A DNA stretch of 64,000 bases, taken from Angiostrongylus vasorum (lineage: Eukaryota > Nematoda > Chromadorea > Rhabditida > Metastrongylidae). The translations under genes were made by a program, and so were the position numbers. Positions 21,951-64,000 of the stretch are shown piece after piece. The stretch lies in contig JADANN010000234.1 in the NCBI GenBank assembly GCA_018806985.1, positions 49,770 to 113,769 on the forward strand. The letters run 5' to 3'. The notes under the pieces were generated by a model. The model ran no database searches. It was not told the DNA's origin and saw nothing but the letters and a program-made list of their open reading frames with translations. How positions within the stretch are numbered: position 1 is the stretch's first letter; the number at the start of each line of letters is the position of its first letter.

Positions 21951-22090
21951 GGCTCGATTTCCTGTCCTCGACATGCTTTTGCGGTGAATGGAATGGAAAG
22001 CACGGATTAGACATGTACTGGTAGTTGTATATTTCACACTGAAATAGGTCAGACTATCAGTGTTCTGACAAATGAGGACGATTAACGATT
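21951..22090 (+). repeat. First, truncated monomer at the left edge of the array
   Basis: The first monomer starts inside the B box (GGCTCGATTTCC). It lacks the A box and anticodon arm but has the rest of the unit. It follows directly after RTE linker sequence (GTTAGCGCGACGGAA). The junction therefore lies within about 10 bp of 21951. Confidence 0.8.
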
Positions 22091-24001
22091 GGCCCAAGTA
22101 GCATAGTGGTTAGTCCTCCAGGTTGTGGTCGTGGCGACACGGGTTCGATTCCTGTCCTCGACATGCTTTTGCGGTGAATGGAATGGAAAGCACGGATTAG
22201 ACGTGTACTGGTAGTTGTATATTTCACACTGAAATGGTTGAGACGGCAGTGTTCTGATAAATGAGGATCGATTAACGATTGGCCCAAGTAGTACAGTGCT
22301 TAGTCCTCCAGGTTGTGGTCGTGGCGACCCAGGCTCGATTCCTGCCTGGGCATTCTTTCGCCGTGAGTAGAATGGAAAGCACGGATTAGACATGTATAGG
22401 TAGTTGTATATTTCACAAGGAAACAGGTCAGACTTCAGTGTTCTGACAAATGAGGACGATTAACGATTGGCCCAAGTAGCATAGTGGTTAGTCCTCCAGG
22501 TTGTGGTCGTGGCGACACGGGTTCGATTCCTGTCCTCGACATGCTTTTCGCGGTGAATGGAATGGAAAGCACGGATTAGACATGTACTGGTAGTTGTATA
22601 TTTCACACTGAAACAGGTCGAGACTTCAGTGTTCTGACAAATGAGGACGATTAACGATTGGCCCAAGTAGCATAGTGGTTAGTCCTCCAGGTTGTGGTCG
22701 TGGCGACCCAGGCTCGATTCCTGTCCTCGGGCATGCTTTTCGCCGTGAATAGAATGGAAAGCACGGATTAGACATGTACTGGTAGTTGTATATTTCACAC
22801 TGAAATAGGTCGAGACGTCAGTGTTCTGATAAATGAGGATCGATTAACGATTGGCCCAAGTAGTACAGTGGTTAGTCCTCCAGGTTGTGGTCGTGGCGAC
22901 ACGGGTTCGATTCCTGTCCTCGACATGCTTTTGCGGTGAATGGAATGGAAAGCACGGATTAGACATGTACTGGTAGTTGTATATTTCACACTGAAATAGG
23001 TCGAGACGTCAGTGTTCTGACAAATGAGGATCGATTAACGATTGGCCCAAGTAGTATAGTGGTTAGTCCTCCAGGTTGTGGTCGTGGCGACCCAGGCTCG
23101 ATTCCTGTCCTCGACATTCTTTTCGCCGTGAATGGAATGGAAAGCACGGATTAGACATGTACTGGTAGTTGTATATTTCACACGGAAACAGGTCAGACTT
23201 CAGTGTTCTGACAAATGAGGACGATTAACGATTGGCCCAAGTAGCATAGTGGTTAGTCCTCCAGGTTGTGGTCGTGGCGACACGGGTTCGATTCCTGTCC
23301 TCGACATGCTTTTGCGGTGAATGGAATGGAAAGCACGGATTAGACATGTACTGGTAGTTGTATATTTCACACTGAAATAGGTTGAGACGTCAGTGTTCTG
23401 ACAAATGAGGATCGATTAACGATTGGCCCAAGTAGCATAGTGGTTAGTCCTCCAGGTTGTGGTCGTGGCGACACGGGCTCGATTCCTGTCCTCGACATGC
23501 TTTTGCGGTGAATGGAATGGAAAGCACGGATTAGACATGTACTGGTAGTTGTATATTTCACACTGAAATAGGTCAGACGTCAGTGTTCTGACAAATGAGG
23601 ATCGATTAACGATTGGCCCAAGTAGTACAGTGGTTAGTCCTCCAGGTTGTGGTCGTGGCGACACGGGCTCGATTCCTGTCCTCGACATGCTTTTCGCGGT
23701 GAATGGAATGGAAAGCACGGATTAGACATGTACTGGTAGTTGTATATTTCACACGGAAACAGGTCAGACTTCAGTGTTCTGACAAATGAGGACGATTAAC
23801 GATTGGCCCAAGTAGCATAGTGGTTAGTCCTCCAGGTTGTGGTCGTGGCGACACGGGCTCGATTCCTGTCCTCGACATGCTTTTGCGGTGAATGGAATGG
23901 AAAGCACGGATTAGACATGTACTGGTAGTTGTATATTTCACACGGAAACAGGTCAGACTTCAGTGTTCTGACAAATGAGGACGATTAACGATTGGCCCAA
24001 G

Positions 24002-24012
24002 TAGCATAGTGG
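24002..24012 (+). promoter_or_regulatory. Representative pol III A box
   Basis: TAGCATAGTGG matches the tRNA A-box pattern TRGCNNARYNGG. It recurs in most units of domains I-III. Many units of domain IV read TAGTACAGTGC, losing the second G. Confidence 0.6.
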
Positions 24013-24044
24013 TTAGTCCTCCAGGTTGTGGTCGTGGCGACACG

Positions 24045-24055
24045 GGTTCGATTCC
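24045..24055 (+). promoter_or_regulatory. Representative pol III B box
   Basis: GGTTCGATTCC is a perfect tRNA B box, 33 bp after the A box as in a normal intron-less tRNA gene. Array variants are GGTTCGACTCC (domain II) and GGCTCGATTCC (common in domains I and IV). Confidence 0.65.
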
Positions 24056-24069
24056 TGTCCTCGACATGC

Positions 24070-24073
24070 TTTT
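24070..24073 (+). terminator. Representative pol III T4 terminator
   Basis: TTTT lies 4 nt past the tRNA-like 3' end (ACATGCTTTTGCGG). Four T residues are the minimal animal pol III stop. Units with TTCTTTCGCC have only three T residues and may read into the spacer. Confidence 0.45.
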
Positions 24074-27000
24074 GCGGTGAATGGAATGGAAAGCACGGAT
24101 TAGACATGTACTGGTAGTTGTATATTTCACACTGAAACAGGTCGAGACGTCAGTGTTCTGATAAATGAGGATCGATTAACGATTGGCCCAAGTAGTACAG
24201 TGGTTAGTCCTCCAGGTTGTGGTCGTGGCGACACAGGCTCGATTCCTGTCCTCGACATGCTTTTCGCGGTGAATGGAATGGAAAGCACGGATTAGACATG
24301 TACTAGGTAGTTGTATATTTCACACGGAAACAGGTCAGACTTCAGTGTTCTGACAAATGAGGACGATTAACGATTGGCCCAAGTAGCATAGTGGTTAGTC
24401 CTCCAGGTTGTGGTCGTGGCGACACGGGTTCGATTCCTGTCCTCGACATGCTTTTGCGGTGAATGGAATGGAAAGCACGGATTAGACATGTACTGGTAGT
24501 TGTATATTTCACACTGAAACAGGTCAGACGTCAGTGTTCTGACAAATGAGGACGATTAACGATTGGCCCAAGTAGCATAGTGGTTAGTCCTCCAGGTTGT
24601 GGTCGTGGCGACACGGGTTCGATTCCTGTCCTCGACATGCTTTTGCGGTGAATGGAATGGAAAGCACGGATTAGACATGTACTGGTAGTTGTATATTTCA
24701 CACGGAAACAGGTCAGACTTCAGTGTTCTGACAAATGAGGACGATTAACGATTGGCCCAAGTAGCATAGTGGTTAGTCCTCCAGGTTGTGGTCGTGGCGA
24801 CACGGGTTCGATTCCTGTCCTCGACATGCTTTTGCGGTGAATGGAATGGAAAGCACGGATTAGACATGTACTGGTAGTTGTATATTTCACACTGAAACAG
24901 GTCGAGACGTCAGTGTTCTGACAAATGAGGACGATTAACGATTGGCCCAAGTAGTACAGTGGTTAGTCCTCCAGGTTGTGGTCGTGGCGACACGGGTTCG
25001 ATTCCTGTCCTCGACATGCTTTTCGCGGTGAATGGAATGGAAAGCACGGATTAGACATGTACTGGTAGTTGTATATTTCACACGGAAACAGGTCAGACTT
25101 CAGTGTTCTGACAAATGAGGACGATTAACGATTGGCCCAAGTAGCATAGTGGTTAGTCCTCCAGGTTGTGGTCGTGGCGACACGGGCTCGATTCCTGTCC
25201 TCGACATGCTTTTCGCGGTGAATGGAATGGAAAGCACGGATTAGACATGTACTGGTAGTTGTATATTTCACACTGAAACAGGTCAGACTTCAGTGTTCTG
25301 ACAAATGAGGACGATTAACGATTGGCCCAAGTAGCATAGTGGTTAGTCCTCCAGGTTGTGGTCGTGGCGACACGGGCTCGATTCCTGTCCTCGACATGCT
25401 TTTCGCGGTGAATGGAATGGAAAGCACGGATTAGACATGTACTAGGTAGTTGTATATTTCACACGGAAACAGGTCAGACTTCAGTGTTCTGACAAATGAG
25501 GACGATTAACGATTGGCCCAAGTAGCATAGTGGTTAGTCCTCCAGGTTGTGGTCGTGGCGACACGGGTTCGATTCCTGTCCTCGACATGCTTTTGCGGTG
25601 AATGGAATGGAAAGCACGGATTAGACGTGTACTGGTAGTTGTATATTTCACACTGAAATAGGTCGAGACGTCAGTGTTCTGACAAATGAGGATCGATTAA
25701 CGATTGGCCCAAGTAGCACAGTGGTTAGTCCTCCAGGTTGTGGTCGTGGCGACCCAGGCTCGATTCCTGTCCTGGGCATTCTTTCGCCGTGAGTAGAATG
25801 GAAAGCACGGATTAGACATGTACTAGGTAGTTGTATATTTCACAAGGAAACAGGTCAGACTTCAGTGTTCTGACAAATGAGGACGATTAACGATTGGCCC
25901 AAGTAGCATAGTGGTTAGTCCTCCAGGTTGTGGTCGTGGCGACACGGGTTCGATTCCTGTCCTCGACATGCTTTTGCGGTGAATGGAATGGAAAGCACGG
26001 ATTAGACATGTACTGGTAGTTGTATATTTCACACGGAAACAGGTCAGACTTCAGTGTTCTGACAAATGAGGACGATTAACGATTGGCCCAAGTAGCATAG
26101 TGGTTAGTCCTCCAGGTTGTGGTCGTGGCGACACGGGTTCGATTCCTGTCCTCGACATGCTTTTGCGGTGAATGGAATGGAAAGCACGGATTAGACATGT
26201 ACTGGTAGTTGTATATTTCACACTGAAACAGGTCAGACTTCAGTGTTCTGACAAATGAGGACGATTAACGATTGGCCCAAGTAGCATAGTGGTTAGTCCT
26301 CCAGGTTGTGGTCGTGGCGACACGGGTTCGATTCCTGTCCTCGACATGCTTTTCGCGGTGAATAGAATGGAAAGCACGGATTAGACATGTACTGGTAGTT
26401 GTATATTTCACACGGAAACAGGTCAGACTTCAGTGTTCTGACAAATGAGGACGATTAACGATTGGCCCAAGTAGCATAGTGGTTAGTCCTCCAGGTTGTG
26501 GTCGTGGCGACACGGGTTCGACTCCTGTCCTCGACATGCTTTTGCGGTGAATGGAATGGAAAGCACGGATTAGACATGTACTGGTAGTTGTATATTTCAC
26601 ACTGAAACAGGTCAGACGTCAGTGTTCTGACAAATGAGGACGATTAACGATTGGCCCAAGTAGTACAGTGGTTAGTCCTCCAGGTTGTGGTCGTGGCGAC
26701 ACGGGTTCGATTCCTGTCCTCGACATGCTTTTGCGGTGAATGGAATGGAAAGCACGGATTAGACATGTACTGGTAGTTGTATATTTCACACGGAAACAGG
26801 TCAGACTTCAGTGTTCTGACAAATGAGGACGATTAACGATTGGCCCAAGTAGCATAGTGGTTAGTCCTCCAGGTTGTGGTCGTGGCGACACGGGTTCGAC
26901 TCCTGTCCTCGACATGCTTTTGCGGTGAATGGAATGGAAAGCACGGATTAGACATGTACTGGTAGTTGTATATTTCACACGGAAACAGGTCAGACTTCAG

Positions 27001-27499
27001 TGTTCTGACAAATGAGGACGATTAACGATTGGCCCAAGTAGCATAGTGGTTAGTCCTCCAGGTTGTGGTCGTGGCGACACGGGTTCGATTCCTGTCCTCG
27101 ACATGCTTTTGCGGTGAATGGAATGGAAAGCACGGATTAGACATGTACTGGTAGTTGTATATTTCACACTGAAACAGGTCAGACGTCAGTGTTCTGACAA
27201 ATGAGGACGATTAACGATTGGCCCAAGTAGCATAGTGGTTAGTCCTCCAGGTTGTGGTCGTGGCGACACGGGTTCGATTCCTGTCCTCGACATGCTTTTG
27301 CGGTGAATGGAATGGAAAGCACGGATTAGACATGTACTGGTAGTTGTATATTTCACACGGAAACAGGTCAGACTTCAGTGTTCTGACAAATGAGGACGAT
27401 TAACGATTGGCCCAAGTAGCATAGTGGTTAGTCCTCCAGGTTGTGGTCGTGGCGACACGGGTTCGACTCCTGTCCTCGACATGCTTTTGCGGTGAATGG

Positions 27500-30400
27500 A
27501 ATGGAAAGCACGGATTAGACATGTACTGTTAGTTGTATATTTCACACGGAAACAGGTCAGACTTCAGTGTTCTGACAAATGAGGACGATTAACGATTGGC
27601 CCAAGTAGCATAGTGGTTAGTCCTCCAGGTTGTGGTCGTGGCGACACGGGTTCGATTCCTGTCCTCGACATGCTTTTGCGGTGAATGGAATGGAAAGCAC
27701 GGATTAGACATGTACTGTTAGTTGTATATTTCACACGGAAACAGGTCAGACTTCAGTGTTCTGACAAATGAGGACGATTAACGATTGGCCCAAGTAGCAT
27801 AGTGGTTAGTCCTCCAGGTTGTGGTCGTGGCGACACGGGTTCGACTCCTGTCCTCGACATGCTTTTGCGGTGAATGGAATGGAAAGCACGGATTAGACAT
27901 GTACTGGTAGTTGTATATTTCACACTGAAACAGGTCAGACGTCAGTGTTCTGACAAATGAGGACGATTAACGATTGGCCCAAGTAGCATAGTGGTTAGTC
28001 CTCCAGGTTGTGGTCGTGGCGACACGGGTTCGACTCCTGTCCTCGACATGCTTTTGCGGTGAATGGAACGGAAAGCACGGATTAGACATGTACTGTTAGT
28101 TGTATATTTCACACGGAAACAGGTCAGACTTCAGTGTTCTGACAAATGAGGACGATTAACGATTGGCCCAAGTAGCATAGTGGTTAGTCCTCCAGGTTGT
28201 GGTCGTGGCGACACGGGTTCGACTCCTGTCCTCGACATGCTTTTGCGGTGAATGGAACGGAAAGCACGGATTAGACATGTACTGTTAGTTGTATATTTCA
28301 CACTGAAACAGGTCAAACGTCAATGATTCTGACAAATTGAGGATGATTAACGATTGGCCCAAGTAGCATAGTGGTTAGTCCTCCAGGTTGTGGTCGTGGC
28401 GACACGGGTTCGACTCCTGTCCTCGACATGCTTTTGCGGTGAATGGAACGGAAAGCACGGATTAGACATGTACTGTTAGTTGTATATTTCACACTGAAAC
28501 AGGTCAGACTTCAGTGTTCTGACAAATGAGGACGATTAACGATTGGCCCAAGTAGCATAGTGGTTAGTCCTCCAGGTTGTGGTCGTGGCGACACGGGTTC
28601 GACTCCTGTCCTCGACATGCTTTTGCGGTGAATGGAACGGAAAGCACGGATTAGACATGTACTGTTAGTTGTATATTTCACACGGAAACAGGTCAGACTT
28701 CAGTGTTCTGACAAATGAGGACGATTAACGATTGGCCCAAGTAGCATAGTGGTTAGTCCTCCAGGTTGTGGTCGTGGCGACACGGGTTCGACTCCTGTCC
28801 TCGACATGCTTTTGCGGTGAATGGAACGGAAAGCACGGATTAGACATGTACTGTTAGTTGTATATTTCACACGGAAACAGGTCAGACGTCAGTGTTCTGA
28901 CAAATGAGGACGATTAACGATTGGCCCAAGTAGCATAGTGGTTAGTCCTCCAGGTTGTGGTCGTGGCGACACGGGTTCGACTCCTGTCCTCGACATGCTT
29001 TTGCGGTGAATGGAACGGAAAGCACGGATTAGACATGTACTGTTAGTTGTATATTTCACACTGAAACAGGTCAGACGTCAGTGATTCTGACAATTGAGGA
29101 TGATTAACGATTGGCCCAAGTAGTACAGTGGTTAGTCCTCCAGGTTGTGGTCGTGGCGACACGGGTTCGACTCCTGTCCTCGACATGCTTTTGCGGTGAA
29201 TGGAACGGAAAGCACGGATTAGACATGTACTGTTAGTTGTATATTTCACACTGAAACAGGTCAGACGTCAGTGTTCTGACAAATGAGGACGATTAACGAT
29301 TGGCCCAAGTAGCATAGTGGTTAGTCCTCCAGGTTGTGGTCGTGGCGACACGGGTTCGACTCCTGTCCTCGACATGCTTTTGCGGTGAATGGAATGGAAA
29401 GCACGGATTAGACATGTACTGTTAGTTGTATATTTCACACGGAAACAGGTCAGACTTCAGTGTTCTGACAAATGAGGACGATTAACGATTGGCCCAAGTA
29501 GCATAGTGGTTAGTCCTCCAGGTTGTGGTCGTGGCGACACGGGTTCGACTCCTGTCCTCGACATGCTTTTGCGGTGAATGGAACGGAAAGCACGGATTAG
29601 ACATGTACTGTTAGTTGTATATTTCACACGGAAACAGGTCAGACTTCAGTGTTCTGACAAATGAGGACGATTAACGATTGGCCCAAGTAGCATAGTGGTT
29701 AGTCCTCCAGGTTGTGGTCGTGGCGACACGGGTTCGACTCCTGTCCTCGACATGCTTTTGCGGTGAATGGAACGGAAAGCACGGATTAGACATGTACTGT
29801 TAGTTGTATATTTCACACTGAAACAGGTCAGACTTCAGTGTTCTGACAAATGAGGACGATTAACGATTGGCCCAAGTAGCATAGTGGTTAGTCCTCCAGG
29901 TTGTGGTCGTGGCGACACGGGTTCGACTCCTGTCCTCGACATGCTTTTGCGGTGAATGGAACGGAAAGCACGGATTAGACATGTACTGTTAGTTGTATAT
30001 TTCACACGGAAACAGGTCAGACTTCAGTGTTCTGACAAATGAGGACGATTAACGATTGGCCCAAGTAGCATAGTGGTTAGTCCTCCAGGTTGTGGTCGTG
30101 GCGACACGGGTTCGACTCCTGTCCTCGACATGCTTTTGCGGTGAATGGAATGGAAAGCACGGATTAGACATGTACTGGTAGTTGTATATTTCACACTGAA
30201 ACAGGTCAGACGTCAGTGATTCTGACAAATGAGGACGATTAACGATTGGCCCAAGTAGCATAGTGGTTAGTCCTCCAGGTTGTGGTCGTGGCGACACGGG
30301 TTCGACTCCTGTCCTCGACATGCTTTTGCGGTGAATGGAATGGAAAGCACGGATTAGACATGTACTGGTAGTTGTATATTTCACACGGAAACAGGTCAGA

Positions 30401-33400
30401 CTTCAGTGTTCTGACAAATGAGGACGATTAACGATTGGCCCAAGTAGCATAGTGGTTAGTCCTCCAGGTTGTGGTCGTGGCGACACGGGTTCGACTCCTG
30501 TCCTCGACATGCTTTTGCGGTGAATGGAACGGAAAGCACGGATTAGACATGTACTGGTAGTTGTATATTTCACACGGAAACAGGTCAGACTTCAGTGTTC
30601 TGACAAATGAGGACGATTAACGATTGGCCCAAGTAGCATAGTGGTTAGTCCTCCAGGTTGTGGTCGTGGCGACACGGGTTCGATTCCTGTCCTCGACATG
30701 CTTTTGCGGTGAATGGAATGGAAAGCACGGATTAGACATGTACTGGTAGTTGTATATTTCACACTGAAACAGGTCAGACGTCAGTGTTCTGATAAATGAG
30801 GACGATTAACGATTGGCCCAAGTAGCATAGTGGTTAGTCCTCCAGGTTGTGGTCGTGGCGACACGGGCTCGATTCCTGTCCTCGACATGCTTTTCGCGGT
30901 GAATGGAATGGAAAGCACGGATTAGACATGTACTGGTAGTTGTATATTTCACACTGAAACAGGTCAGACTTCAGTGTTCTGACAAATGAGGACGATTAAC
31001 GATTGGCCCAAGTAGCATAGTGGTTAGTCCTCCAGGTTGTGGTCGTGGCGACACGGGTTCGATTCCTGTCCTCGACATGCTTTTGCGGTGAATGGAATGG
31101 AAAGCACGGATTAGACATGTACTGGTAGTTGTATATTTCACACTGAAATAGGTCGAGACGTCAGTGTTCTGATAAATGAGGATCGATTAACGATTGGCCC
31201 AAGTAGCATAGTGGTTAGTCCTCCAGGTTGTGGTCGTGGCGACACAGGCTCGATTCCTGTCCTCGACATGCTTTTCGCGGTGAATGGAATGGAAAGCACG
31301 GATTAGACATGTACTAGGTAGTTGTATATTTCACACGGAAACAGGTCAGACTTCAGTGTTCTGACAAATGAGGACGATTAACGATTGGCCCAAGTAGCAT
31401 AGTGGTTAGTCCTCCAGGTTGTGGTCGTGGCGACACGGGTTCGATTCCTGTCCTCGACATGCTTTTCGCGGTGAATGGAATGGAAAGCACGGATTAGACA
31501 TGTACTGGTAGTTGTATATTTCACACTGAAATAGGTCGAGACGTCAGTGTTCTGACAAATGAGGATCGATTAACGATTGGCCCAAGTAGCATAGTGGTTA
31601 GTCCTCCAGGTTGTGGTCGTGGCGACACGGGCTCGATTCCTGTCCTCGACATGCTTTCGCGGTGAATGGAATGGAAAGCACGGATTAGACATGTACTGTT
31701 AGTTGTATATTTCACACGGAAACAGGTCAGACTTCAGTGTTCTGACAAATGAGGACGATTAACGATTGGCCCAAGTAGCATAGTGGTTAGTCCTCCAGGT
31801 TGTGGTCGTGGCGACACGGGTTCGACTCCTGTCCTCGACATGCTTTTGCGGTGAATGGAATGGAAAGCACGGATTAGACATGTACTGGTAGTTGTATATT
31901 TCACACGGAAACAGGTCAGACTTCAGTGTTCTGACAAATGAGGACGATTAACGATTGGCCCAAGTAGCATAGTGGTTAGTCCTCCAGGTTGTGGTCGTGG
32001 CGACACGGGTTCGATTCCTGTCCTCGACATGCTTTTGCGGTGAATGGAATGGAAAGCACGGATTAGACATGTACTGGTAGTTGTATATTTCACACTGAAA
32101 CAGGTCAGACGTCAGTGTTCTGACAAATGAGGACGATTAACGATTGGCCCAAGTAGCATAGTGGTTAGTCCTCCAGGTTGTGGTCGTGGCGACACGGGTT
32201 CGATTCCTGTCCTCGACATGCTTTTCGCGGTGAATGGAATGGAAAGCACGGATTAGACATGTACTGTTAGTTGTATATTTCACACGGAAACAGGTCAGAC
32301 TTCAGTGTTCTGACAAATGAGGACGATTAACGATTGGCCCAAGTAGCATAGTGGTTAGTCCTCCAGGTTGTGGTCGTGGCGACACGGGTTCGACTCCTGT
32401 CCTCGACATGCTTTTGCGGTGAATGGAATGGAAAGCACGGATTAGACATGTACTGTTAGTTGTATATTTCACACGGAAACAGGTCAGACTTCAGTGTTCT
32501 GACAAATGAGGACGATTAACGATTGGCCCAAGTAGCATAGTGGTTAGTCCTCCAGGTTGTGGTCGTGGCGACACGGGTTCGACTCCTGTCCTCGACATGC
32601 TTTTGCGGTGAATGGAACGGAAAGCACGGATTAGACATGTACTGTTAGTTGTATATTTCACACGGAAACAGGTCAGACTTCAGTGTTCTGACAAATGAGG
32701 ACGATTAACGATTGGCCCAAGTAGCATAGTGGTTAGTCCTCCAGGTTGTGGTCGTGGCGACACGGGTTCGACTCCTGTCCTCGACATGCTTTTGCGGTGA
32801 ATGGAACGGAAAGCACGGATTAGACATGTACTGTTAGTTGTATATTTCACACTGAAACAGGTCAAACGTCAATGATTCTGACAAAATTGAGGATGATTAA
32901 CGATTGGCCCAAGTAGCACAGTGGTTAGTCCTCCAGGTTGTGGTCGTGGCGACACGGGTTCGACTCCTGTCCTCGACATGCTTTTGCGGTGAATGGAACG
33001 GAAAGCACGGATTAGACATGTACTGTTAGTTGTATATTTCACACGGAAACAGGTCAGACTTCAGTGTTCTGACAAATGAGGACGATTAACGATTGGCCCA
33101 AGTAGCATAGTGGTTAGTCCTCCAGGTTGTGGTCGTGGCGACACGGGTTCGACTCCTGTCCTCGACATGCTTTTGCGGTGAATGGAACGGAAAGCACGGA
33201 TTAGACATGTACTGTTAGTTGTATATTTCACACTGAAACAGGTCAGACGTCAATGATTCTGACAATTGAGGATGATTAACGATTGGCCCAAGTAGTACAG
33301 TGGTTAGTCCTCCAGGTTGTGGTCGTGGCGACACGGGTTCGACTCCTGTCCTCGACATGCTTTTGCGGTGAATGGAACGGAAAGCACGGATTAGACATGT

Positions 33401-35500: not shown

Positions 35501-35510
35501 TTCACACTGA
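32650..35510 (+). repeat. Duplicated block inside domain II (right copy)
   Basis: This is the counterpart of 28100-30400. A third shared landmark, a GTCAGTGATTCTGAC spacer between two GGTAG-type units, lies near 30205 and again near 35330 (offset about 5125, 27 monomers). Confidence 0.55.
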
Positions 35511-38500: not shown

Positions 38501-39400
38501 TGGAAAGCACGGATTAGACATGTACTGGTAGTTGTATATTTCACACTGAAACAGGTCGAGACGTCAGTGTTCTGACAAATGAGGATCGATTAACGATTGG
38601 CCCAAGTAGTACAGTGGTTAGTCCTCCAGGTTGTGGTCGTGGCGACACGGGTTCGATTCCTGTCCTCGACATGCTTTTGCGGTGAATGGAATGGAAAGCA
38701 CGGATTTAGACGTGTACTGGTAGTTGTATATTTCACACTGAAATGGTTGAGACGGCAGTGTTCTGATAAATGAGGATCGATTAACGATTGGCCCAAGTAG
38801 TACAGTGGTTAGTCCTCCAGGTTGTGGTCGTGGCGACACGGGTTCGATTCCTGTCCTCGACATGCTTTTGCGGTGAATGGAATGGAAAGCACGGATTAGA
38901 CATGTACTGGTAGTTGTATATTTCACACGGAAACAGGTCAGACTTCAGTGTTCTGACAAATGAGGACGATTAACGATTGGCCCAAGTAGCACAGTGGTTA
39001 GTCCTCCAGGTTGTGGTCGTGGCGACACGGGTTCGATTCCCTGTCCTCGACATGCTTTTGCGGTGAATGGAATGGAAAGCACGGATTAGACGTGTACTGG
39101 TAGTTGTATATTTCACACTGAAATGGTTGAGACGGCAGTGTTCTGATAAATGAGGATCATTAACGATTGGCCCAAGTAGTACAGTGGTTAGTCCTCCAGG
39201 TTGTGGTCGTGGCGACACGGGTTCGATTCCTGTCCTCGACATGCTTTTGCGGTGAATGGAATGGAAAGCACGGATTAGACATGTACTGGTAGTTGTATAT
39301 TTCACACTGAAATAGGTTGAGACGGCAGTGTTCTGATAAATGAGGATCATTAACGATTGGCCCAAGTAGTACAGTGGTTAGTCCTCCAGGTTGTGGTCGT
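35500..39400 (+). repeat. Satellite domain III
   Basis: Units return to GTACTGGTAG and GGTTCGATTCC with GGAATGG. The spacer gradually shifts from X and Y types to the TGAAATGGTTGAGACGGCAG type (M) that dominates the next domain; the first M units here are near 38360 and 38740. The domain is a transition zone. Confidence 0.6.
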
Positions 39401-46574: not shown

Positions 46575-46646
46575 GCCCAAGTAGCATAGTGGTTAGTCCT
46601 CCAGGTTGTGGTCGTGGCGACACGGGTTCGATTCCTGCCCTGGGCA
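46575..46646 (+). tRNA. Best-folding tRNA-His(GUG)-like unit (2 of 3)
   Basis: It has the same combination as the unit at 42779: A box TAGCATAGTGG, B box GGTTCGATTCC, end CCTGCCCTGGGCA, then TTCTTTTCGCC. It recurs 380 bp downstream at 46955, so a two-monomer block has been duplicated here. Confidence 0.4.
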
Positions 46647-46954
46647 TTCTTTTCGCCGTGAATAGAATGGAAAGCACGGATTAGACGTGTACTGGTAGTT
46701 GTATATTTCACACTGAAATGGTTGAGACGGCAGTGTTCTGATAAATGAGGATCGATTAACGATTGGCCCAAGTAGTACAGTGCTTAGTCCTCCAGGTTGT
46801 GGTCGTGGCGACACGGGCTCGATTCCTGCCTGGGCATTCTTTCGCCGTGAATAGAATGGAAAGCACGGATTAGACATGTACTAGGTAGTTGTATATTTCA
46901 CACGGAAACAGGTCAGACTTCAGTGTTCTGACAAATGAGGACGATTAACGATTG

Positions 46955-47026
46955 GCCCAAGTAGCATAGTGGTTAGTCCTCCAGGTTGTGGTCGTGGCGA
47001 CACGGGTTCGATTCCTGCCCTGGGCA
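46955..47026 (+). tRNA. Best-folding tRNA-His(GUG)-like unit (3 of 3)
   Basis: This appears identical in its tRNA-like part to 46575-46646 and lies exactly two monomers (380 bp) downstream. Stem pairing is as described for 42779-42850. Confidence 0.4.
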
Positions 47027-53000: not shown

Positions 53001-56000
53001 GTCAGACTTCAGTGTTCTGACAAATGAGGACGATTAACGATTGGCCCAAGTAGCATAGTGGTTAGTCCTCCAGGTTGTGGTCGTGGCGACCCAGGCTCGA
53101 TTCCTGCCTGGGCATTCTTTCGCCGTGAGTAGAATGGAAAGCACGGATTAGACATGTATAGGTAGTTGTATATTTCACAAGGAAACAGGTCAGACTTCAG
53201 TGTTCTGACAAATGAGGACGATTAACGATTGGCCCAAGTAGCATAGTGGTTAGTCCTCCAGGTTGTGGTCGTGGCGACACGGGTTCGATTCCTGCCTGGG
53301 CATTCTTTCGCCGTGAATAGAATGGAAAGCACGGATTAGACGTGTACTGGTAGTTGTATATTTCACACTGAAATGGTTGAGACGGCAGTGTTCTGATAAA
53401 TGAGGATCGATTAACGATTGGCCCAAGTAGTACAGTGCTTAGTCCTCCAGGTTGTGGTCGTGGCGACACAGGCTCGATTCCTGTCCTCGACATGCTTTTG
53501 CGGTGAATGGAATGGAAAGCACGGATTAGACATGTATAGGTAGTTGTATATTTCACACGGAAACAGGTCGAGACTTCAGTGTTCTGACAAATGAGGACGA
53601 TTAACGATTGGCCCAAGTAGCATAGTGGTTAGTCCTCCAGGTTGTGGTCGTGGCGACACGGGTTCGATTCCTGCCTGGGCATTCTTTCGCCGTGAATAGA
53701 ATGGAAAGCACGGATTAGACGTGTACTGGTAGTTGTATATTTCACACTGAAATGGTTGAGACGGCAGTGTTCTGATAAATGAGGATCATTAACGATTTAC
53801 GATTGGCCCAAGTAGTACAGTGCTTAGTCCTCCAGGTTGTGGTCGTGGCGACACGGGCTCGATTCCTGTCCTCGACATGCTTTTGCGGTGAATGGAATGG
53901 AAAGCACGGATTAGACATGTACTAGGTAGTTGTATATTTCACACTGAAATGGTTGAGACGGCAGTGTTCTGATAAATGAGGATCGATTAACGATTGGCCC
54001 AAGTAGTACAGTGCTTAGTCCTCCAGGTTGTGGTCGTGGCGACACGGGCTCGATTCCTGTCCTCGACATGCTTTTGCGGTGAATGGAATGGAAAGCACGG
54101 ATTAGACATGTACTAGGTAGTTGTATATTTCACACTGAAATGGTTGAGACGGCAGTGTTCTGATAAATGAGGATCATTAACGATTGGCCCAAGTAGTACA
54201 GTGCTTAGTCCTCCAGGTTGTGGTCGTGGCGACACAGGCTCGATTCCTGTCCTCGACATGCTTTTGCGGTGAATGGAATGGAAAGCACGGATTAGACATG
54301 TATAGGTAGTTGTATATTTCACAAGGAAACAGGTCGAGACTTCAGTGTTCTGACAAATGAGGATCGATTAACGATTGGCCCAAGTAGCACAGTGCTTAGT
54401 CCTCCAGGTTGTGGTCGTGGCGACCCAGGCTCGATTCCTGCCTGGGCATTCTTTCGCCGTGAGTAGAATGGAAAGCACGGATTAGACATGTATAGGTAGT
54501 TGTATATTTCACAAGGAAACAGGTCAGACTTCAGTGTTCTGACAAATGAGGACGATTAACGATTGGCCCAAGTAGCATAGTGCTTAGTCCTCCAGGTTGT
54601 GGTCGTGGCGACACGGGTTCGATTCCTGCCTGGGCATTCTTTCGCCGTGAATAGAATGGAAAGCACGGATTAGACGTGTACTGGTAGTTGTATATTTCAC
54701 ACTGAAATGGTTGAGACGGCAGTGTTCTGATAAATGAGGATCGATTAACGATTGGCCCAAGTAGTACAGTGCTTAGTCCTCCAGGTTGTGGTCGTGGCGA
54801 CACAGGCTCGATTCCTGTCCTGGGCATTCTTTCGCCGTGAATAGAATGGAAAGCACGGATTAGACATGTACTAGGTAGTTGTATATTTCACACTGAAATG
54901 GTTGAGACGGCAGTGTTCTGATAAATGAGGATCGATTAACGATTGGCCCAAGTAGTACAGTGCTTAGTCCTCCAGGTTGTGGTCGTGGCGACACGGGTTC
55001 GATTCCTGTCCTCGACATGCTTTTGCGGTGAATGGAATGGAAAGCACGGATTAGACGTGTACTAGGTAGTTGTATATTTCACACTGAAATGGTTGAGACG
55101 GCAGTGTTCTGATAAATGAGGATCATTAACGATTGGCCCAAGTAGTACAGTGGTTAGTCCTCCAGGTTGTGGTCGTGGCGACCCAGGCTCGATTCCTGCC
55201 TGGGCATTCTTTCGCCGTGAGTAGAATGGAAAGCACGGATTAGACATGTACTGGTAGTTGTATATTTCACACTGAAATGGTTGAGACGGCAGTGTTCTGA
55301 TAAATGAGGATCGATTAACGATTGGCCCAAGTAGTACAGTGCTTAGTCCTCCAGGTTGTGGTCGTGGCGACACGGGCTCGATTCCTGTCCTCGACATGCT
55401 TTTGCGGTGAATGGAATGGAAAGCACGGATTAGACGTGTACTAGGTAGTTGTATATTTCACACTGAAATGGTTGAGACGGCAGTGTTCTGATAAATGAGG
55501 ATCATTAACGATTGGCCCAAGTAGTACAGTGCTTAGTCCTCCAGGTTGTGGTCGTGGCGACCCAGGCTCGATTCCTGTCCTGGGCATTCTTTTCGCCGTG
55601 AGTAGAATGGAAAGCACGGATTAGACATGTATAGGTAGTTGTATATTTCACAAGGAAACAGGTCAGACTTCAGTGTTCTGACAAATGAGGACGATTAACG
55701 ATTGGCCCAAGTAGCATAGTGGTTAGTCCTCCAGGTTGTGGTCGTGGCGACCCAGGCTCGATTCCTGCCTGGGCATTCTTTCGCCGTGAGTAGAATGGAA
55801 AGCACGGATTAGACATGTATAGGTAGTTGTATATTTCACAAGGAAACAGGTCAGACTTCAGTGTTCTGACAAATGAGGACGATTAACGATTGGCCCAAGT
55901 AGCATAGTGGTTAGTCCTCCAGGTTGTGGTCGTGGCGACCCAGGCTCGATTCCTGCCTGGGCATTCTTTTCGCCGTGAATAGAATGGAAAGCACGGATTA

Positions 56001-59000
56001 GACGTGTACTGGTAGTTGTATATTTCACACTGAAATGGTTGAGACGGCAGTGTTCTGATAAATGAGGATCGATTAACGATTGGCCCAAGTAGTACAGTGC
56101 TTAGTCCTCCAGGTTGTGGTCGTGGCGACACGGGCTCGATTCCTGTCCTCGGGCATTCTTTCGCCGTGAATAGAATGGAAAGCACGGATTAGACATGTAT
56201 AGGTAGTTGTATATTTCACAAGGAAACAGGTCAGACTTCAGTGTTCTGACAAATGAGGACGATTAACGATTGGCCCAAGTAGCATAGTGGTTAGTCCTCC
56301 AGGTTGTGGTCGTGGCGACACGGGTTCGATTCCTGCCTGGGCATTCTTTCGCCGTGAATAGAATGGAAAGCACGGATTAGACGTGTACTGGTAGTTGTAT
56401 ATTTCACACTGAAATGGTTGAGACGGCAGTGTTCTGATAAATGAGGATCATTAACGATTTAACGATTGGCCCAAGTAGTACAGTGCTTAGTCCTCCAGGT
56501 TGTGGTCGTGGCGACACTGGCTCGATTCCTATCCTCGATATGCTTTTGCGGTGAATGGAATGGAAAGCACGGATTAGACATGTATAGGTAGTTGTATATT
56601 TCACACTGAAATGGTTGAGACGGCAGTGTTCTGATAAATGAGGATCATTAACGATTGGCCCAAGTAGTACAGTGCTTAGTCCTCCAGGTTGTGGTCGTGG
56701 CGACACGGGTTCGATTCCTGTCGTCGACATGCTTTTCGCGGTGAATGGAATGGAAAGCACGGATTAGACGTGTACTGGTAGTTGTATATTTCACACTGAA
56801 ATGGTTGAGACGGCAGTGTTCTGATAAATGAGGATCGATTAACGATTGGCCCAAGTAGTACAGTGGTTAGTCCTCCAGGTTGTGGTCGTGGCGACACGGG
56901 CTCGATTCCTGTCCTCGACATGCTTTTCGCGGTGAATGGAATGGAAAGCACGGATTAGACGTGTACTGGTAGTTGTATATTTCACACTGAAATGGTTGAG
57001 ACGGCAGTGTTCTGATAAATGAGGATCATTAACGATTGGCCCAAGTAGTACAGTGCTTAGTCCTCCAGGTTGTGGTCGTGGCGACCCAGGCTCGATTCCT
57101 GTCCTGGGCATTCTTTCGCCGTGAGTAGAATGGAAAGCACGGATTAGACATGTACTAGGTAGTTGTATATTTCACACGGAAACAGGTCGAGACTTCAGTG
57201 TTCTGACAAATGAGGACTGATTAACGATTGGCCCAAGTAGCATAGTGGTTAGTCCTCCAGGTTGTGGTCGTGGCGACACGGGTTCGATTCCTGCCTGGGC
57301 ATTCTTTCGCCGTGAGTAGAATGGAAAGCACGGATTAGACATGTACTAGGTAGTTGTATATTTCACAAGGAAACAGGTCAGACTTCAGTGTTCTGACAAA
57401 TGAGGACGATTAACGATTGGCCCAAGTAGCATAGTGGTTAGTCCTCCAGGTTGTGGTCGTGGCGACACGGGTTCGATTCCTGTCGTCGACATGCTTTTGC
57501 GGTGAATGGAATGGAAAGCACGGGTATTAGACGTGTACTGGTAGTTGTATATTTCACACTGAAATGGTTGAGACGGCAGTGTTCTGATAAATGAGGATCA
57601 TTAACGATTTAACGATTGGCCCAAGTAGTACAGTGCTTAGTCCTCCAGGTTGTGGTCGTGGCGAAACTGGCTCGATTCCTATCCTCGATATGCTTTTGCG
57701 GTGAATGGAATGGAAAGCACGGATTAGACATGTATAGGTAGTTGAATATTTCACACTGAAATGGTTGAGACGGCAGTGTTCTGATAAATGAGGATCATTA
57801 ACGATTGGCCCAAGTAGTACAGTGCTTAGTCCTCCAGGTTGTGGTCGTGGCGACACGGGTTCGATTCCTGTCGTCGACATGCTTTTGCGGTGAATGGAAT
57901 GGAAAGCGCGGATTAGACGTGTACTGGTAGTTGTATATTTCACACTGAAATGGTTGAGACGGCAGTGTTCTGATAAATGAGGATCATTAACGATTGGCCC
58001 AAGTAGTACAGTGGTTAGTCCTCCAGGTTGTGGTCGTGGCGACCCAGGCTCGATTCCTGCCTGGGCATTCTTTCGCCGTGAGTAGAATGGAAAGCACGGA
58101 TTAGACATGTATAGGTAGTTGTATATTTCACAAGGAAACAGGTCAGACTTCAGTGTTCTGACAAATGAGGACGATTAACGATTGGCCCAAGTAGCATAGT
58201 GGTTAGTCCTCCAGGTTGTGGTCGTGGCGACACAGGCTCGATTCCTGCCTGGGCATTCTTTCGCCGTGAGTAGAATGGAAAGCACGGATTAGACGTGTAC
58301 TGGTAGTTGTATATTTCACACTGAAATGGTTGAGACGGCAGTGTTCTGATAAATGAGGATCGATTAACGATTGGCCCAAGTAGTACAGTGCTTAGTCCTC
58401 CAGGTTGTGGTCGTGGCGACACGGGCTCGATTCCTGTCCTCGACATGCTTTTCGCGGTGAATGGAATGGAAAGCACGGATTAGACATGTACTAGGTAGTT
58501 GTATATTTCACAAGGAAACAGGTCAGACTTCAGTGTTCTGACAAATGAGGACGATTAACGATTGGCCCAAGTAGCATAGTGGTTAGTCCTCCAGGTTGTG
58601 GTCGTGGCGACACGGGTTCGATTCCTGCCTGGGCATTCTTTTCGCCGTGAATAGAATGGAAAGCACGGATTAGACGTGTACTGGTAGTTGTATATTTCAC
58701 ACTGAAATGGTTGAGACGGCAGTGTTCTGATAAATGAGGATCATTAACGATTTAACGATTGGCCCAAGTAGTACAGTGCTTAGTCCTCCAGGTTGTGGTC
58801 GTGGCGAAACTGGCTCGATTCCTATCCTCGATATGCTTTTGCGGTGAATGGAATGGAAAGCACGGATTAGACATGTATAGGTAGTTGTATATTTCACACT
58901 GAAATGGTTGAGACGGCAGTGTTCTGATAAATGAGGATCATTAACGATTGGCCCAAGTAGTACAGTGCTTAGTCCTCCAGGTTGTGGTCGTGGCGACACG

Positions 59001-62000
59001 GGTTCGATTCCCTGTCCTCGACATGCTTTTGCGGTGAATGGAATGGAAAGCACGGATTAGACGTGTACTGGTAGTTGTATATTTCACACTGAAATGGTTG
59101 AGACGGCAGTGTTCTGATAAATGAGGATCATTAACGATTGGCCCAAGTAGTACAGTGGTTAGTCCTCCAGGTTGTGGTCGTGGCGACCCAGGCTCGATTC
59201 CTGCCTGGGCATTCTTTTCGCCGTGAGTAGAATGGAAAGCACGGATTAGACATGTACTAGGTAGTTGTATATTTCACACTGAAATGGTTGAGACGGCAGT
59301 GTTCTGATAAATGAGGATCATTAACGATTGGCCCAAGTAGTACAGTGCTTAGTCCTCCAGGTTGTGGTCGTGGCGACACGGGTTCGATTCCTGTCCTCGA
59401 CATGCTTTTGCGGTGAATGGAATGGAAAGCACGGATTAGACGTGTACTGGTAGTTGTATATTTCACACTGAAATGGTTGAGACGGCAGTGTTCTGATAAA
59501 TGAGGATCGATTAACGATTGGCCCAAGTAGTACAGTGGTTAGTCCTCCAGGTTGTGGTCGTGGCGACCCAGGCTCGATTCCTGCCTGGGCATTCTTTTCG
59601 CCGTGAATAGAATGGAAAGCACGGATTAGACATGTACTAGGTAGTTGTATATTTCACAAGGAAACAGGTCAGACTTCAGTGTTCTGACAAATGAGGACGA
59701 TTAACGATTGGCCCAAGTAGCATAGTGCTTAGTCCTCCAGGTTGTGGTCGTGGCGACCCAGGCTCGATTCCTGCCTGGGCATTCTTTCGCCGTGAGTAGA
59801 ATGGAAAGCACGGATTAGACGTGTACTGGTAGTTGTATATTTCACACTGAAATGGTTGAGACGGCAGTGTTCTGATAAATGAGGATCGATTAACGATTGG
59901 CCCAAGTAGTACAGTGCTTAGTCCTCCAGGTTGTGGTCGTGGCGACACGGGTTCGATTCCCTGTCCTCGACATGCTTTTCGCCGTGAATAGAATGGAAAG
60001 CACGGATTAGACATGTACTAGGTAGTTGTATATTTCACACGGAAACAGGTCAGACTTCAGTGTTCTGACAAATGAGGACGATTAACGATTGGCCCAAGTA
60101 GCATAGTGGTTAGTCCTCCAGGTTGTGGTCGTGGCGACACGGGTTCGATTCCTGCCTGGGCATTCTTTCGCCGTGAATAGAATGGAAAGCACGGATTAGA
60201 CGTGTACTGGTAGTTGTATATTTCACACTGAAATGGTTGAGACGGCAGTGTTCTGATAAATGAGGATCATTAACGATTTAACGATTGGCCCAAGTAGTAC
60301 AGTGCTTAGTCCTCCAGGTTGTGGTCGTGGCGACACGGGCTCGATTCCTATCCTCGATATGCTTTTGCGGTGAATGGAATGGAAAGCACGGATTAGACAT
60401 GTATAGGTAGTTGTATATTTCACACTGAAATGGTTGAGACGGCAGTGTTCTGATAAATGAGGATCGATTAACGATTGGCCCAAGTAGTACAGTGCTTAGT
60501 CCTCCAGGTTGTGGTCGTGGCGACACGGGTTCGATTCCCTGTCGTCGACATGCTTTTGCGGTGAATGGAATGGAAAGCGCGGGTTTAGACGTGTACTGGT
60601 AGTTGTATATTTCACACTGAAATGGTTGAGACGGCAGTGTTCTGATAAATGAGGATCATTAACGATTGGCCCAAGTAGTACAGTGCTTAGTCCTCCAGGT
60701 TGTGGTCGTGGCGACCCAGGCTCGATTCCTGTCCTCGACATTCTTTTCGCCGTGAGTAGAATGGAAAGCACGGATTAGACATGTACTAGGTAGTTGTATA
60801 TTTCACACTGAAATGGTTGAGACGGCAGTGTTCTGATAAATGAGGATCATTAACGATTGGCCCAAGTAGTACAGTGCTTAGTCCTCCAGGTTGTGGTCGT
60901 GGCGACACGGGTTCGATTCCTGTCCTCGACATGCTTTTGCGGTGAATGGAATGGAAAGCACGGATTAGACGTGTACTGGTAGTTGTATATTTCACACTGA
61001 AATGGTTGAGACGGCAGTGTTCTGATAAATGAGGATCGATTAACGATTGGCCCAAGTAGTACAGTGGTTAGTCCTCCAGGTTGTGGTCGTGGCGACCCAG
61101 GCTCGATTCCCTGCCTGGGCATTCTTTCGCCGTGAGTAGAATGGAAAGCACGGATTAGACATGTATAGGTAGTTGTATATTTCACAAGGAAACAGGTCAG
61201 ACTTCAGTGTTCTGACAAATGAGGACGATTAACGATTGGCCCAAGTAGCATAGTGCTTAGTCCTCCAGGTTGTGGTCGTGGCGACCCAGGCTCGATTCCT
61301 GCCTGGGCATTCTTTCGCCGTGAGTAGAATGGAAAGCACGGATTAGACGTGTACTGGTAGTTGTATATTTCACACTGAAATGGTTGAGACGGCAGTGTTC
61401 TGATAAATGAGGATCGATTAACGATTGGCCCAAGTAGTACAGTGCTTAGTCCTCCAGGTTGTGGTCGTGGCGACACGGGCTCGATTCCTGTCCTCGACAT
61501 GCTTTTGCGGTGAATGGAATGGAAAGCACGGATTAGACATGTACTAGGTAGTTGTATATTTCACACGGAAACAGGTCAGACTTCAGTGTTCTGACAAATG
61601 AGGACGATTAACGATTGGCCCAAGTAGCATAGTGGTTAGTCCTCCAGGTTGTGGTCGTGGCGACACGGGTTCGATTCCTGCCTGGGCATTCTTTCGCCGT
61701 GAATAGAATGGAAAGCACGGATTAGACGTGTACTGGTAGTTGTATATTTCACACTGAAATGGTTGAGACGGCAGTGTTCTGATAAATGAGGATCATTAAC
61801 GATTTAACGATTGGCCCAAGTAGTACAGTGCTTAGTCCTCCAGGTTGTGGTCGTGGCGACACTGGCTCGATTCCTATCCTCGACATGCTTTTGCGGTGAA
61901 TGGAATGGAAAGCACGGATTAGACATGTATAGGTAGTTGTATATTTCACACTGAAATGGTTGAGACGGCAGTGTTCTGATAAATGAGGATCGATTAACGA

Positions 62001-64000
62001 TTGGCCCAAGTAGTACAGTGCTTAGTCCTCCAGGTTGTGGTCGTGGCGACACGGGTTCGATTCCTGTCGTCGACATGCTTTTCGCGGTGAATGGAATGGA
62101 AAGCACGGATTTAGACGTGTACTGGTAGTTGTATATTTCACACTGAAATGGTTGAGACGGCAGTGTTCTGATAAATGAGGATCGATTAACGATTGGCCCA
62201 AGTAGTACAGTGGTTAGTCCTCCAGGTTGTGGTCGTGGCGACCCAGGCTCGATTCCTGCCTGGGCATTCTTTTCGCCGTGAATAGAATGGAAAGCACGGA
62301 TTAGACATGTACTAGGTAGTTGTATATTTCACACGGAAACAGGTCAGACTTCAGTGTTCTGACAAATGAGGACGATTAACGATTGGCCCAAGTAGCATAG
62401 TGGTTAGTCCTCCAGGTTGTGGTCGTGGCGACCCAGGCTCGATTCCTGCCTGGGCATTCTTTCGCCGTGAGTAGAATGGAAAGCACGGATTAGACGTGTA
62501 CTGGTAGTTGTATATTTCACACTGAAATGGTTGAGACGGCAGTGTTCTGATAAATGAGGATCATTAACGATTGGCCCAAGTAGTACAGTGCTTAGTCCTC
62601 CAGGTTGTGGTCGTGGCGACACGGGTTCGATTCCTGTCCTCGACATGCTTTTGCGGTGAATGGAATGGAAAGCACGGATTAGACATGTACTGGTAGTTGT
62701 ATATTTCACACTGAAATAGGTTGAGACGGCAGTGTTCTGATAAATGAGGATCGATTAACGATTGGCCCAAGTAGTACAGTGGTTAGTCCTCCAGGTTGTG
62801 GTCGTGGCGACCCAGGCTCGATTCCTGCCTGGGCATTCTTTTCGCCGTGAGTAGAATGGAAAGCACGGATTAGACATGTATAGGTAGTTGTATATTTCAC
62901 AAGGAAACAGGTCAGACTTCAGTGTTCTGACAAATGAGGACGATTAACGATTGGCCCAAGTAGCATAGTGGTTAGTCCTCCAGGTTGTGGTCGTGGCGAC
63001 ACAGGCTCGATTCCTGCCTGGGCATTCTTTCGCCGTGAGTAGAATGGAAAGCACGGATTAGACGTGTACTGGTAGTTGTATATTTCACACTGAAATGGTT
63101 GAGACGGCAGTGTTCTGATAAATGAGGATCATTAACGATTGGCCCAAGTAGTACAGTGCTTAGTCCTCCAGGTTGTGGTCGTGGCGACACGGGTTCGATT
63201 CCTGTCCTCGACATGCTTTTGCGGTGAATGGAATGGAAAGCACGGATTAGACATGTACTAGGTAGTTGTATATTTCACACTGAAACAGGTTGAGACTGCA
63301 GTGTTCTGATAAATGAGGATCGATTAACGATTGGCCCAAGTAGCATAGTGGTTAGTCCTCCAGGTTGTGGTCGTGGCGACACAGGCTCGATTCCTGCCTG
63401 GGCATTCTTTCGCCGTGAGTAGAATGGAAAGCACGGATTAGACGTGTACTGGTAGTTGTATATTTCACACTGAAATGGTTGAGACGGCAGTGTTCTGATA
63501 AATGAGGATCGATTAACGATTGGCCCAAGTAGTACAGTGCTTAGTCCTCCAGGTTGTGGTCGTGGCGACACGGGCTCGATTCCTGTCCTCGACATGCTTT
63601 TGCGGTGAATGGAATGGAAAGCACGGATTAGACATGTATAGGTAGTTGTATATTTCACAAGGAAACAGGTCAGACTTCAGTGTTCTGACAAATGAGGACG
63701 ATTAACGATTGGCCCAAGTAGCATAGTGGTTAGTCCTCCAGGTTGTGGTCGTGGCGACCCAGGCTCGATTCCTGCCTGGGCATTCTTTCGCCGTGAGTAG
63801 AATGGAAAGCACGGATTAGACGTGTACTAGGTAGTTGTATATTTCACACTGAAATGGTTGAGACGGCAGTGTTCTGATAAATGAGGATCATTAACGATTG
63901 GCCCAAGTAGTACAGTGCTTAGTCCTCCAGGTTGTGGTCGTGGCGACACGGGTTCGATTCCTGTCCTCGACATGCTTTTGCCGTGAATGGAATGGAAAGC

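What the first reader, a model, noticed from the sequence alone, without database searches (positions are those of the whole stretch)
21951..64000. A 42-kb satellite whose monomer is an RNA polymerase III tRNA-His-like unit
Every ~190-bp monomer has an A box, a correctly spaced B box, a tRNA-shaped 72-nt segment with a GUG anticodon and usually a T4 run just downstream. About 220 such units in one orientation form either an extreme tRNA-like gene array or a satellite that arose from one. Known tandem tRNA arrays (Entamoeba arrays, the Xenopus tRNA cluster) have different unit designs. A nematode histidine-tRNA satellite is not something I know to be described.
Basis: partly seen in the sequence, partly recalled or inferred. 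Interest (0 to 1): 0.9.

Follow-up and report, generated by a model that had tools for sequence, protein, structure and literature searches.

The report
Decayed histidine-tRNA gene array, worm satellite
The 42-kb repeat looks like a dead offshoot of a histidine-tRNA gene array, in a roundworm genome where at least six kinds of tRNA gene are bunched into tandem arrays of their own, a layout described as unusual.

Summary
A head-to-tail array of ~189-bp units (221 copies) starts at 21952, where a retrotransposon-like fragment is cut off, and runs to 64000, which is also its contig's end. Every unit carries a tRNA-His-derived segment. Two changes to the interpretation. First, the array looks dead: 0 of 221 units have an intact cloverleaf (at most 18 of 21 pairs), and its tRNA part has diverged as fast as its spacer. 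It is also the most homogeneous array of its family. Second, the genome holds three more large His arrays (136, 80, 69 units) and two small clusters; 60 of these 295 units have 20-21 pairs, no indel and GTG, five of them all 21. Pattern searches found no stand-alone tRNA-His gene. Further patterns put Asp, Asn, Lys-CTT, Lys-TTT and Gly-GCC hits mainly in arrays of their own; of these only the Asp array was read. Most likely this strongylid nematode keeps many tRNA genes as satellite-like, separately homogenised arrays that decayed units can overrun; the window is one such. Transcription is untested. Entamoeba and Hydractinia are parallels; ten paper searches listed no nematode case.

The parts
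21952..64000 (+). tRNA-His-derived tandem array, ~189-bp unit, about 221 units, open at the right because the contig ends
   Evidence: TRF; segmentation; contig end
20901..21951 (+). retrotransposon-like fragment cut off by the array; 89% identical to the inverted copy at 10612-11679. The name rests on resemblance recalled from strongylid non-LTR elements and on reverse-transcriptase fragments elsewhere in the flank; the reading frame tested here (21399-21851) matched no Pfam family
   Evidence: self-alignment; inverted repeats; Pfam
22092..22163 (+). tRNA-like 72-nt segment of the first full unit, anticodon GTG
   Evidence: ARAGORN; sequence
22164..22281 (+). spacer of the first full unit, with a T4 run shortly after the tRNA-like 3' end
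   Evidence: sequence; T4 in 174 of 220 units
22092..41069 (+). left subdomain (units starting 22092-40881): 95 of 100 units keep G19 and 79 of 100 keep GGTTCGA; the first block of 20 is mixed for GGTTCGA (10 of 20)
41070..64000 (+). right subdomain (units starting 41070-63712): mosaic, G19 in 41 of 120 and GGTTCGA in 44 of 120
54755..54826 (+). best-scoring tRNA-like segment of the window (40.0 bits; intact copies elsewhere score 67.3)

Best explanation
The window array is a non-coding satellite descended from a tandem array of genuine tRNA-His genes. In this genome several tRNA species are kept as head-to-tail arrays of one isoacceptor each, with short units (one tRNA plus about 117 bp of spacer for His and 96 bp for Asp, read directly; hit steps of about 165, 211 and 235 bp for Lys-CTT, Asn and Gly). 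Unequal crossing-over and gene conversion homogenise each array on its own. Because a cell needs only some working copies, units with broken cloverleaves accumulate, and a broken unit can spread through a whole array as long as sister arrays keep enough good copies. The window shows the end state: a recently homogenised array of a defective unit. Shown: tRNA origin, sister arrays with the same unit, loss of pairing, array-by-array homogenisation, near-intact units in the sister arrays. Inferred: the recombination mechanism, relaxed selection as the reason, and that the sister arrays supply the cell's tRNA-His. Not tested: transcription of any copy.
For: An intact 72-nt tRNA-His (67.3 bits, 21 of 21 pairs) is identical at C274:254820-254891, C20:22481-22552 and C20:6941-7012. 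Five of 516 units have 21 of 21 pairs, no indel and GTG: C20 2/136, C272 1/80, C460 1/69, C274 1/8, C460b 0/2, window 0/221. With at least 20 pairs: 38/136, 15/80, 6/69, 1/8, 0/2, window 0/221. Counting pairs alone, 21 of 21 is reached by 3, 10, 3, 1, 0 and 0 units, so the no-indel rule is strict. The window consensus breaks five pairs: three acceptor, one D, one anticodon stem. Consensus divergence among C20, C272 and C460: tRNA 3-4 of 69-72 sites, spacer 14-17 of 117; window against each: tRNA 10-11 of 69-72, spacer 13-18 of 115. Private consensus changes: window 8 tRNA and 5 spacer, other three arrays pooled 4 and 15, Fisher P=0.030 (9 sites with a split that could not be assigned were left out). 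Nearest neighbour lies in the same array for 496 of 496 units of the four large arrays. The window is the most homogeneous: mean pairwise identity 0.941 against 0.892-0.911, singleton changes 0.22/kb against 1.1-4.7/kb. Other isoacceptors: Asp 31 of 36 pattern hits on C372 (168-bp unit); Lys-CTT 43, Asn 36 and Lys-TTT 11 of the 100 hits listed out of 136, on C443, C445 and C360; Gly-GCC 89 of the 100 listed out of 378, on C86. The same patterns read backwards gave 0, 10 and 4 hits. Single copies checked: Asn 66.6, Gly 66.5, Lys-TTT 59.9, Lys-CTT 46.8 bits; best Asp 55.6.
Against: The loss-of-constraint test is modest: P=0.030 on 32 changes from four consensus sequences; for the window alone tRNA against spacer gives P=0.083, and for the other three arrays pooled the lower tRNA rate gives P=0.15. 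Within each array the tRNA part is about as variable as the spacer or more so (pi 0.115 vs 0.073 in C20; 0.096 vs 0.094 in C272; 0.121 vs 0.098 in C460; 0.057 vs 0.059 in the window), so most units of the sister arrays look unconstrained too. In C20 only 70 of 136 units align with GTG at the anticodon, and its majority unit has a changed base just before the anticodon. A box, B box and T4 together occur in 33 of 135 C20, 67 of 74 C272 and 23 of 67 C460 units. No transcription data. Very low private variation with many site combinations in the window could partly reflect assembly polishing. C20 and C272 also touch contig ends.
Confidence: 0.8

Rival explanations
1. The window units are transcribed by RNA polymerase III into a non-tRNA RNA that has taken on a role of its own (a source of small RNAs, or a chromatin boundary), so the array is maintained for its internal promoter rather than for translation.
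For: A box, B box and a T4 run are all present in 85 of 220 units. None of the 8 consensus changes (listed) falls on the 17 fixed positions of the two boxes as I placed them.
Against: Missing those positions by chance has probability 0.10. Inside the array, changes in the boxes are common: G19 is lost in 84 of 220 units and T54 is changed in 97 of 220.
Confidence: 0.12
2. The array is an ordinary satellite in which a tRNA-like stretch was captured once; the other tRNA arrays are unrelated.
For: No window unit has an intact cloverleaf.
Against: The same ~190-bp unit, spacer included, occurs in C20, C272 and C460 with near-intact tRNA genes, and the Asp array has the same one-tRNA-per-unit layout.
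Confidence: 0.03
3. Assembly artefact: a small number of real units was inflated or scrambled during assembly and polishing.
For: Four contigs end inside the His array family (C234 right end, C272 both ends, C20 left end, C386 left end). Private variation in the window is very low.
Against: A His array (C460, 480548-493376 of 848942 bp) and the Lys-CTT hits (C443, 2.224-2.249 of 4.57 Mb) lie inside long contigs. 161 of 220 window units are distinct and the array has two subdomains.
Confidence: 0.05

Closest known systems
Entamoeba tRNA gene arrays (PMC2652664; abstract and passages seen)
   Same: Almost all tRNA genes in tandem arrays; homogenisation ascribed to concerted evolution; at least one single-gene His unit ([H-GTG], E. 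equi).
   Different: Units hold up to 5 tRNA genes, and in E. histolytica and E. dispar short tandem repeats. The authors saw no clear evidence of pseudogene copies; here most His units are decayed and the window array has no intact one.
Hydractinia ncRNA tandem arrays (PMC11067881; section 14 read)
   [quoted passage not shown] Here the spacer is about 117 nt (His) or 96 nt (Asp) and many copies are decayed. No dead array is mentioned in the section read.
Human 1q23.3 tRNA variable-number tandem repeat (PMC4041453; passages seen)
   Same: Tandem repeat with tRNA genes and copy-number variation.
   Different: 7.3-kb unit with five tRNA genes of different kinds, bound by CTCF; a single locus.
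Arabidopsis tRNA-Pro and Tyr-Tyr-Ser clusters (PMC12652284; passages seen)
   Same: Tandem single-isoacceptor cluster (27 tRNA-Pro genes).
   Different: A few clusters; most plant tRNA genes are dispersed (PMC10701932, abstract in the listing).

Membership tests
functional eukaryotic tRNA-His gene (window units) | cloverleaf with paired acceptor, D, anticodon and T stems | tested here: not met
   0 of 221 units with 21 of 21 pairs, maximum 18; best Rfam score 40.0 bits
functional eukaryotic tRNA-His gene (window units) | GTG anticodon | tested here: met
   221 of 221
functional eukaryotic tRNA-His gene (window units) | A box, B box and T4 terminator | tested here: inconclusive
   136, 123 and 174 of 220; all three in 85 of 220
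functional eukaryotic tRNA-His gene (window units) | transcription and aminoacylation | not testable with these tools
   no RNA data
tandem tRNA gene array (genome as a whole) | head-to-tail units with intact tRNA genes of one kind | tested here: met
   His arrays C20, C272, C460; Asp array piece L058 with 9 of 43 units at 21 of 21 pairs
tandem tRNA gene array (genome as a whole) | several isoacceptors organised this way | tested here: met
   His and Asp arrays read as sequence; Asn, Lys-CTT, Lys-TTT and Gly-GCC judged from same-strand hit spacing plus one copy each; the Lys-TTT unit length was not determined. Glu and other Gly anticodons were covered by the pattern but cannot be judged from its capped list
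tandem tRNA gene array (genome as a whole) | all or nearly all tRNA genes arrayed | not tested
   the Rfam tRNA search of the genome did not complete; pattern hits away from the arrays were also seen and not checked, e.g. Asp at C194, Gly at C1 and C85, Asn at C187 and C291
satellite DNA | long tandem array, homogenised, without coding capacity | tested here: met

The most novel reading that the evidence does not exclude
A nematode has moved essentially its whole nuclear tRNA gene set into isoacceptor-specific satellite arrays, with few or no stand-alone genes for some isoacceptors such as His; these arrays evolve as a birth-and-death factory in which non-functional tRNA satellites are continually spun off, so tRNA supply depends on array turnover rather than on single genes.
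Probability: 0.45. Interest if true: 0.85.

Novelty: new variant of a known kind. Interest (0 to 1): 0.7.

Why it matters
Tandem arrays of tRNA genes are called unusual outside Entamoeba (statement in PMC11067881). A strongylid nematode genome with at least six isoacceptors seen in arrays adds an animal lineage, and shows something that I did not see described for those cases: an array that has turned into a tRNA-derived satellite beside sister arrays that keep near-intact genes. That makes it possible to ask how essential multicopy genes survive satellite-style homogenisation, and how tRNA-derived satellites are born. It also warns that tRNA gene counts from such genomes mix genes with satellite copies.

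Tried and rejected
SINE-like dispersal: not supported. In what the searches listed, the unit away from the big arrays occurs as short tandem clusters (8 hits at C274, 2 at C460:415378) and as a 77-bp piece at the start of C386, not as scattered single copies (the list was capped, and one search scored 40 of 383 candidates). Hidden stand-alone tRNA-His genes: three patterns for anticodon stems not of the array type gave 4 distinct sites; ARAGORN finds no tRNA at three, and the fourth is a unit of the C460:415378 cluster. Another pattern gave one site, inside C272. A 31-mer with up to one mismatch hit 69 sites on C20, C272, C274 and C460; a relaxed array-type pattern hit 46 sites on C20, C272 and C460. 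A gap in pattern space remains, and unusual T loops would be missed. Exact search of viral contigs for the tRNA core: nothing; not a collection where a nematode is expected. Preserved promoter in the window: no significant signal. Shared flanks between arrays: of the matches over 150 bp, the 40 longest shown are 66-83% identical, which reads as old dispersed repeats rather than a recent shared duplication. Paper searches for a nematode or satellite precedent gave none in the titles, abstracts and passages that I saw; one search listed 40 of 68 hits, 10 of 32, 20 of 549. Two nematode genome papers were opened, with no relevant statement in the passages shown. A Drosophila paper speaks of expansions and contractions of tRNA tandem arrays, meaning clusters within about 300 tRNA genes (PMC7919458, passages).

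Full report
WHAT IS THERE. The window carries one tandem array from 21954 to 64000 (period 189, 221.2 copies, 93% matches). Segmentation gives 220 full units, all on the + strand, spaced 188-200 bp. To the left, a retrotransposon-like fragment aligns at 89% to an inverted copy at 10612-11679 and stops at 21951, so the array starts at 21952. The window ends where its contig ends (C234, 113769 bp), so the array is open on that side.

THE UNIT. A 72-nt tRNA-like segment with anticodon GTG (221 of 221 units) is followed by about 117 nt of spacer. ARAGORN accepts 131 as tRNA-His; Rfam's tRNA model accepts 72, best 40.0 bits. A box, B box and T4 occur in 136, 123 and 174 of 220 units, all three in 85. 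The cloverleaf is damaged: 0 of 221 units have all 21 stem pairs, the most is 18, and the consensus breaks three acceptor pairs, one D pair and one anticodon-stem pair. These units should not make a working tRNA (inference from structure).

THE FAMILY IN THE GENOME. The genome (279.9 Mb, 468 contigs) holds more arrays of the same unit: C20 from the contig start to 25769 (136 units), C272 38715-53485 plus 286 bp at its other end (80 units), C460 480548-493376 (69 units), and small clusters on C274 (8) and C460:415378 (2). C386 begins with 77 bp of the unit. Four contigs end inside array sequence, so true lengths are probably larger. Intact tRNA-His genes (67.3 bits) occur twice on C20 and once on C274; C272 and C460 have one copy each with 21 of 21 pairs, no indel and GTG. 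Units with 20-21 pairs, no indel and GTG: 38/136, 15/80, 6/69, 1/8 and 0/2, against 0/221 in the window. By pairs alone, 21 of 21 is reached by 3, 10, 3, 1, 0 and 0 units. Of 194 Rfam tRNA matches in 13 fetched stretches of these contigs, 150 are listed and 16 score 60 bits or more. Against the idea that C20 is a healthy gene array: only 70 of its 136 units align with GTG, and its majority unit has a changed base just before the anticodon.

NO STAND-ALONE tRNA-His FOUND. A 31-nt core with up to one mismatch hits only C20, C272, C274 and C460, 69 sites. Three relaxed patterns for other anticodon-stem types give 4 distinct sites; ARAGORN finds no tRNA at three of them and the fourth is a unit of the small C460 cluster. 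A relaxed array-type pattern hits 46 sites, all on C20, C272 or C460. This is pattern evidence, not a complete tRNA scan: the Rfam search of the whole genome did not complete.

OTHER tRNAs ARE ARRAYED TOO. A search for tRNA-Asp, meant as a positive control, put 31 of 36 hits on C372:451-34088. A 9.2-kb piece of it holds 43 ARAGORN tRNAs (42 Asp, 1 unassigned), mostly in 168-bp units; 9 of 43 have 21 of 21 pairs (55.6 bits), and 39 reach Rfam's gathering score, with a range down to 31.9 bits. A pattern for Asn, Lys-CTT and Lys-TTT gave 136 hits (10 for the pattern read backwards); of the 100 listed, 43 are Lys-CTT on C443 (smallest steps about 165 bp), 36 are Asn on C445 (211 bp) and 11 are Lys-TTT on C360 (unit length not determined). 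A Gly/Glu/Asp-type pattern gave 378 hits (4 backwards); of the 100 listed, 89 are Gly-GCC on C86 (235 bp); Glu and other Gly anticodons cannot be judged from this capped list. One copy each was read: Asn 66.6, Gly 66.5, Lys-TTT 59.9, Lys-CTT 46.8 bits; the Lys-CTT copy matched only the inner part of the model and ARAGORN did not call it. The DNA between the hits was read for His and Asp only. Hits away from the arrays exist and were not checked (Asp at C194; Gly at C1 and C85; Asn at C187 and C291).

HOW THE ARRAYS EVOLVE. For divergence I used 503 of the 516 units (neighbouring starts 170-215 bp apart). The nearest neighbour of a unit is in its own array in 496 of 496 cases for the four large arrays; in the small C274 cluster 3 of 6 are nearest to C272 units. 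This is the mark of concerted evolution. Between the consensus sequences of C20, C272 and C460 the tRNA part differs at 3-4 of 69-72 sites and the spacer at 14-17 of 117; between the window and each of them the tRNA part differs at 10-11 and the spacer at 13-18 of 115. Private changes split 4 tRNA and 15 spacer in the three arrays pooled, 8 and 5 in the window (Fisher P=0.030; 9 unassignable sites left out). I read this as the tRNA having stayed constrained on the other lineages and having lost constraint on the window lineage. The test is modest: the pooled tRNA-against-spacer comparison of the other three arrays alone gives P=0.15 and the window alone P=0.083, and inside every array the tRNA part is about as variable as the spacer or more so. 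Selection, if present, keeps some good copies, not each copy. The window is the most homogeneous array (0.941 mean identity, 0.22 singleton changes per kb, against 0.892-0.911 and 1.1-4.7), and has two subdomains with a switch near 41 kb.

ORGANISM. A reverse-transcriptase fragment of the left flank is closest (best hit 75% identity over 78% of the query) to Angiostrongylus cantonensis proteins; A. costaricensis, Necator, Haemonchus, Ancylostoma and Nippostrongylus also appear among the 120 of 622 hits listed. I read this as a strongylid, perhaps metastrongyloid, nematode; the species is not established.

MECHANISM. Shown: tRNA origin, sister arrays, decay, homogenisation. Inferred: unequal exchange or gene conversion spreads variants; because sister arrays carry enough good genes, an array can be overrun by a defective unit and continue as a satellite. 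Not shown: transcription.

COMPARISON. Entamoeba (PMC2652664, abstract and passages) has units of up to five tRNA genes and no clear pseudogene copies. [quoted passage not shown] The human 1q23.3 repeat (PMC4041453, passages) is a single locus with a 7.3-kb unit. PMC2888827 (passages) reports tDNA clusters of fifty and more members in Nematostella and teleosts. The ten paper searches turned up no nematode case in what was listed; the library lacks most subscription papers and all bioRxiv preprints.

The lists bear out six isoacceptors seen in arrays, four of them from hit spacing and one copy each, with Glu and other Gly anticodons undecided. The probability of the most novel reading was lowered from 0.50 to 0.45 for that reason.

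Noticed in passing
G000 contigs C372, C443, C445, C360, C86: Tandem arrays, one isoacceptor each, of tRNA-Asp, Lys-CTT, Asn, Lys-TTT and Gly-GCC hits, found while running a control for the His search.
   Followed up: partly
window 9297-11889, 18323-19576 and 20901-21951: Several pieces of a non-LTR-like retrotransposon in both orientations. Two fragments match reverse transcriptase (RVT_1) at 26.0 and 29.8 bits against a cut-off of 29.6; reading frames are short and broken.
   Followed up: partly
window 22092-64000: The array changes character near 41 kb: the left part is more uniform, the right part a mosaic of variants. Identity tends to be slightly higher at even unit steps (0.959, 0.955, 0.961, 0.960 at steps 2, 4, 6, 8 against 0.951, 0.954, 0.953, 0.957 at 1, 3, 5, 7), hinting at a weak two-unit repeat.
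   Followed up: partly
L038-L040 (C20:1-25769): ARAGORN calls some C20 units tRNA-Asp, Thr or Pro rather than His; the C20 majority unit carries a changed base just before the anticodon.
   Followed up: no
C272:47119-47899: Shortened unit steps of 143-159 bp inside the C272 His array.
   Followed up: no
L058 (C372:300-9500): The Asp array mixes 168-bp units with shortened units of 132-135 bp.
   Followed up: no
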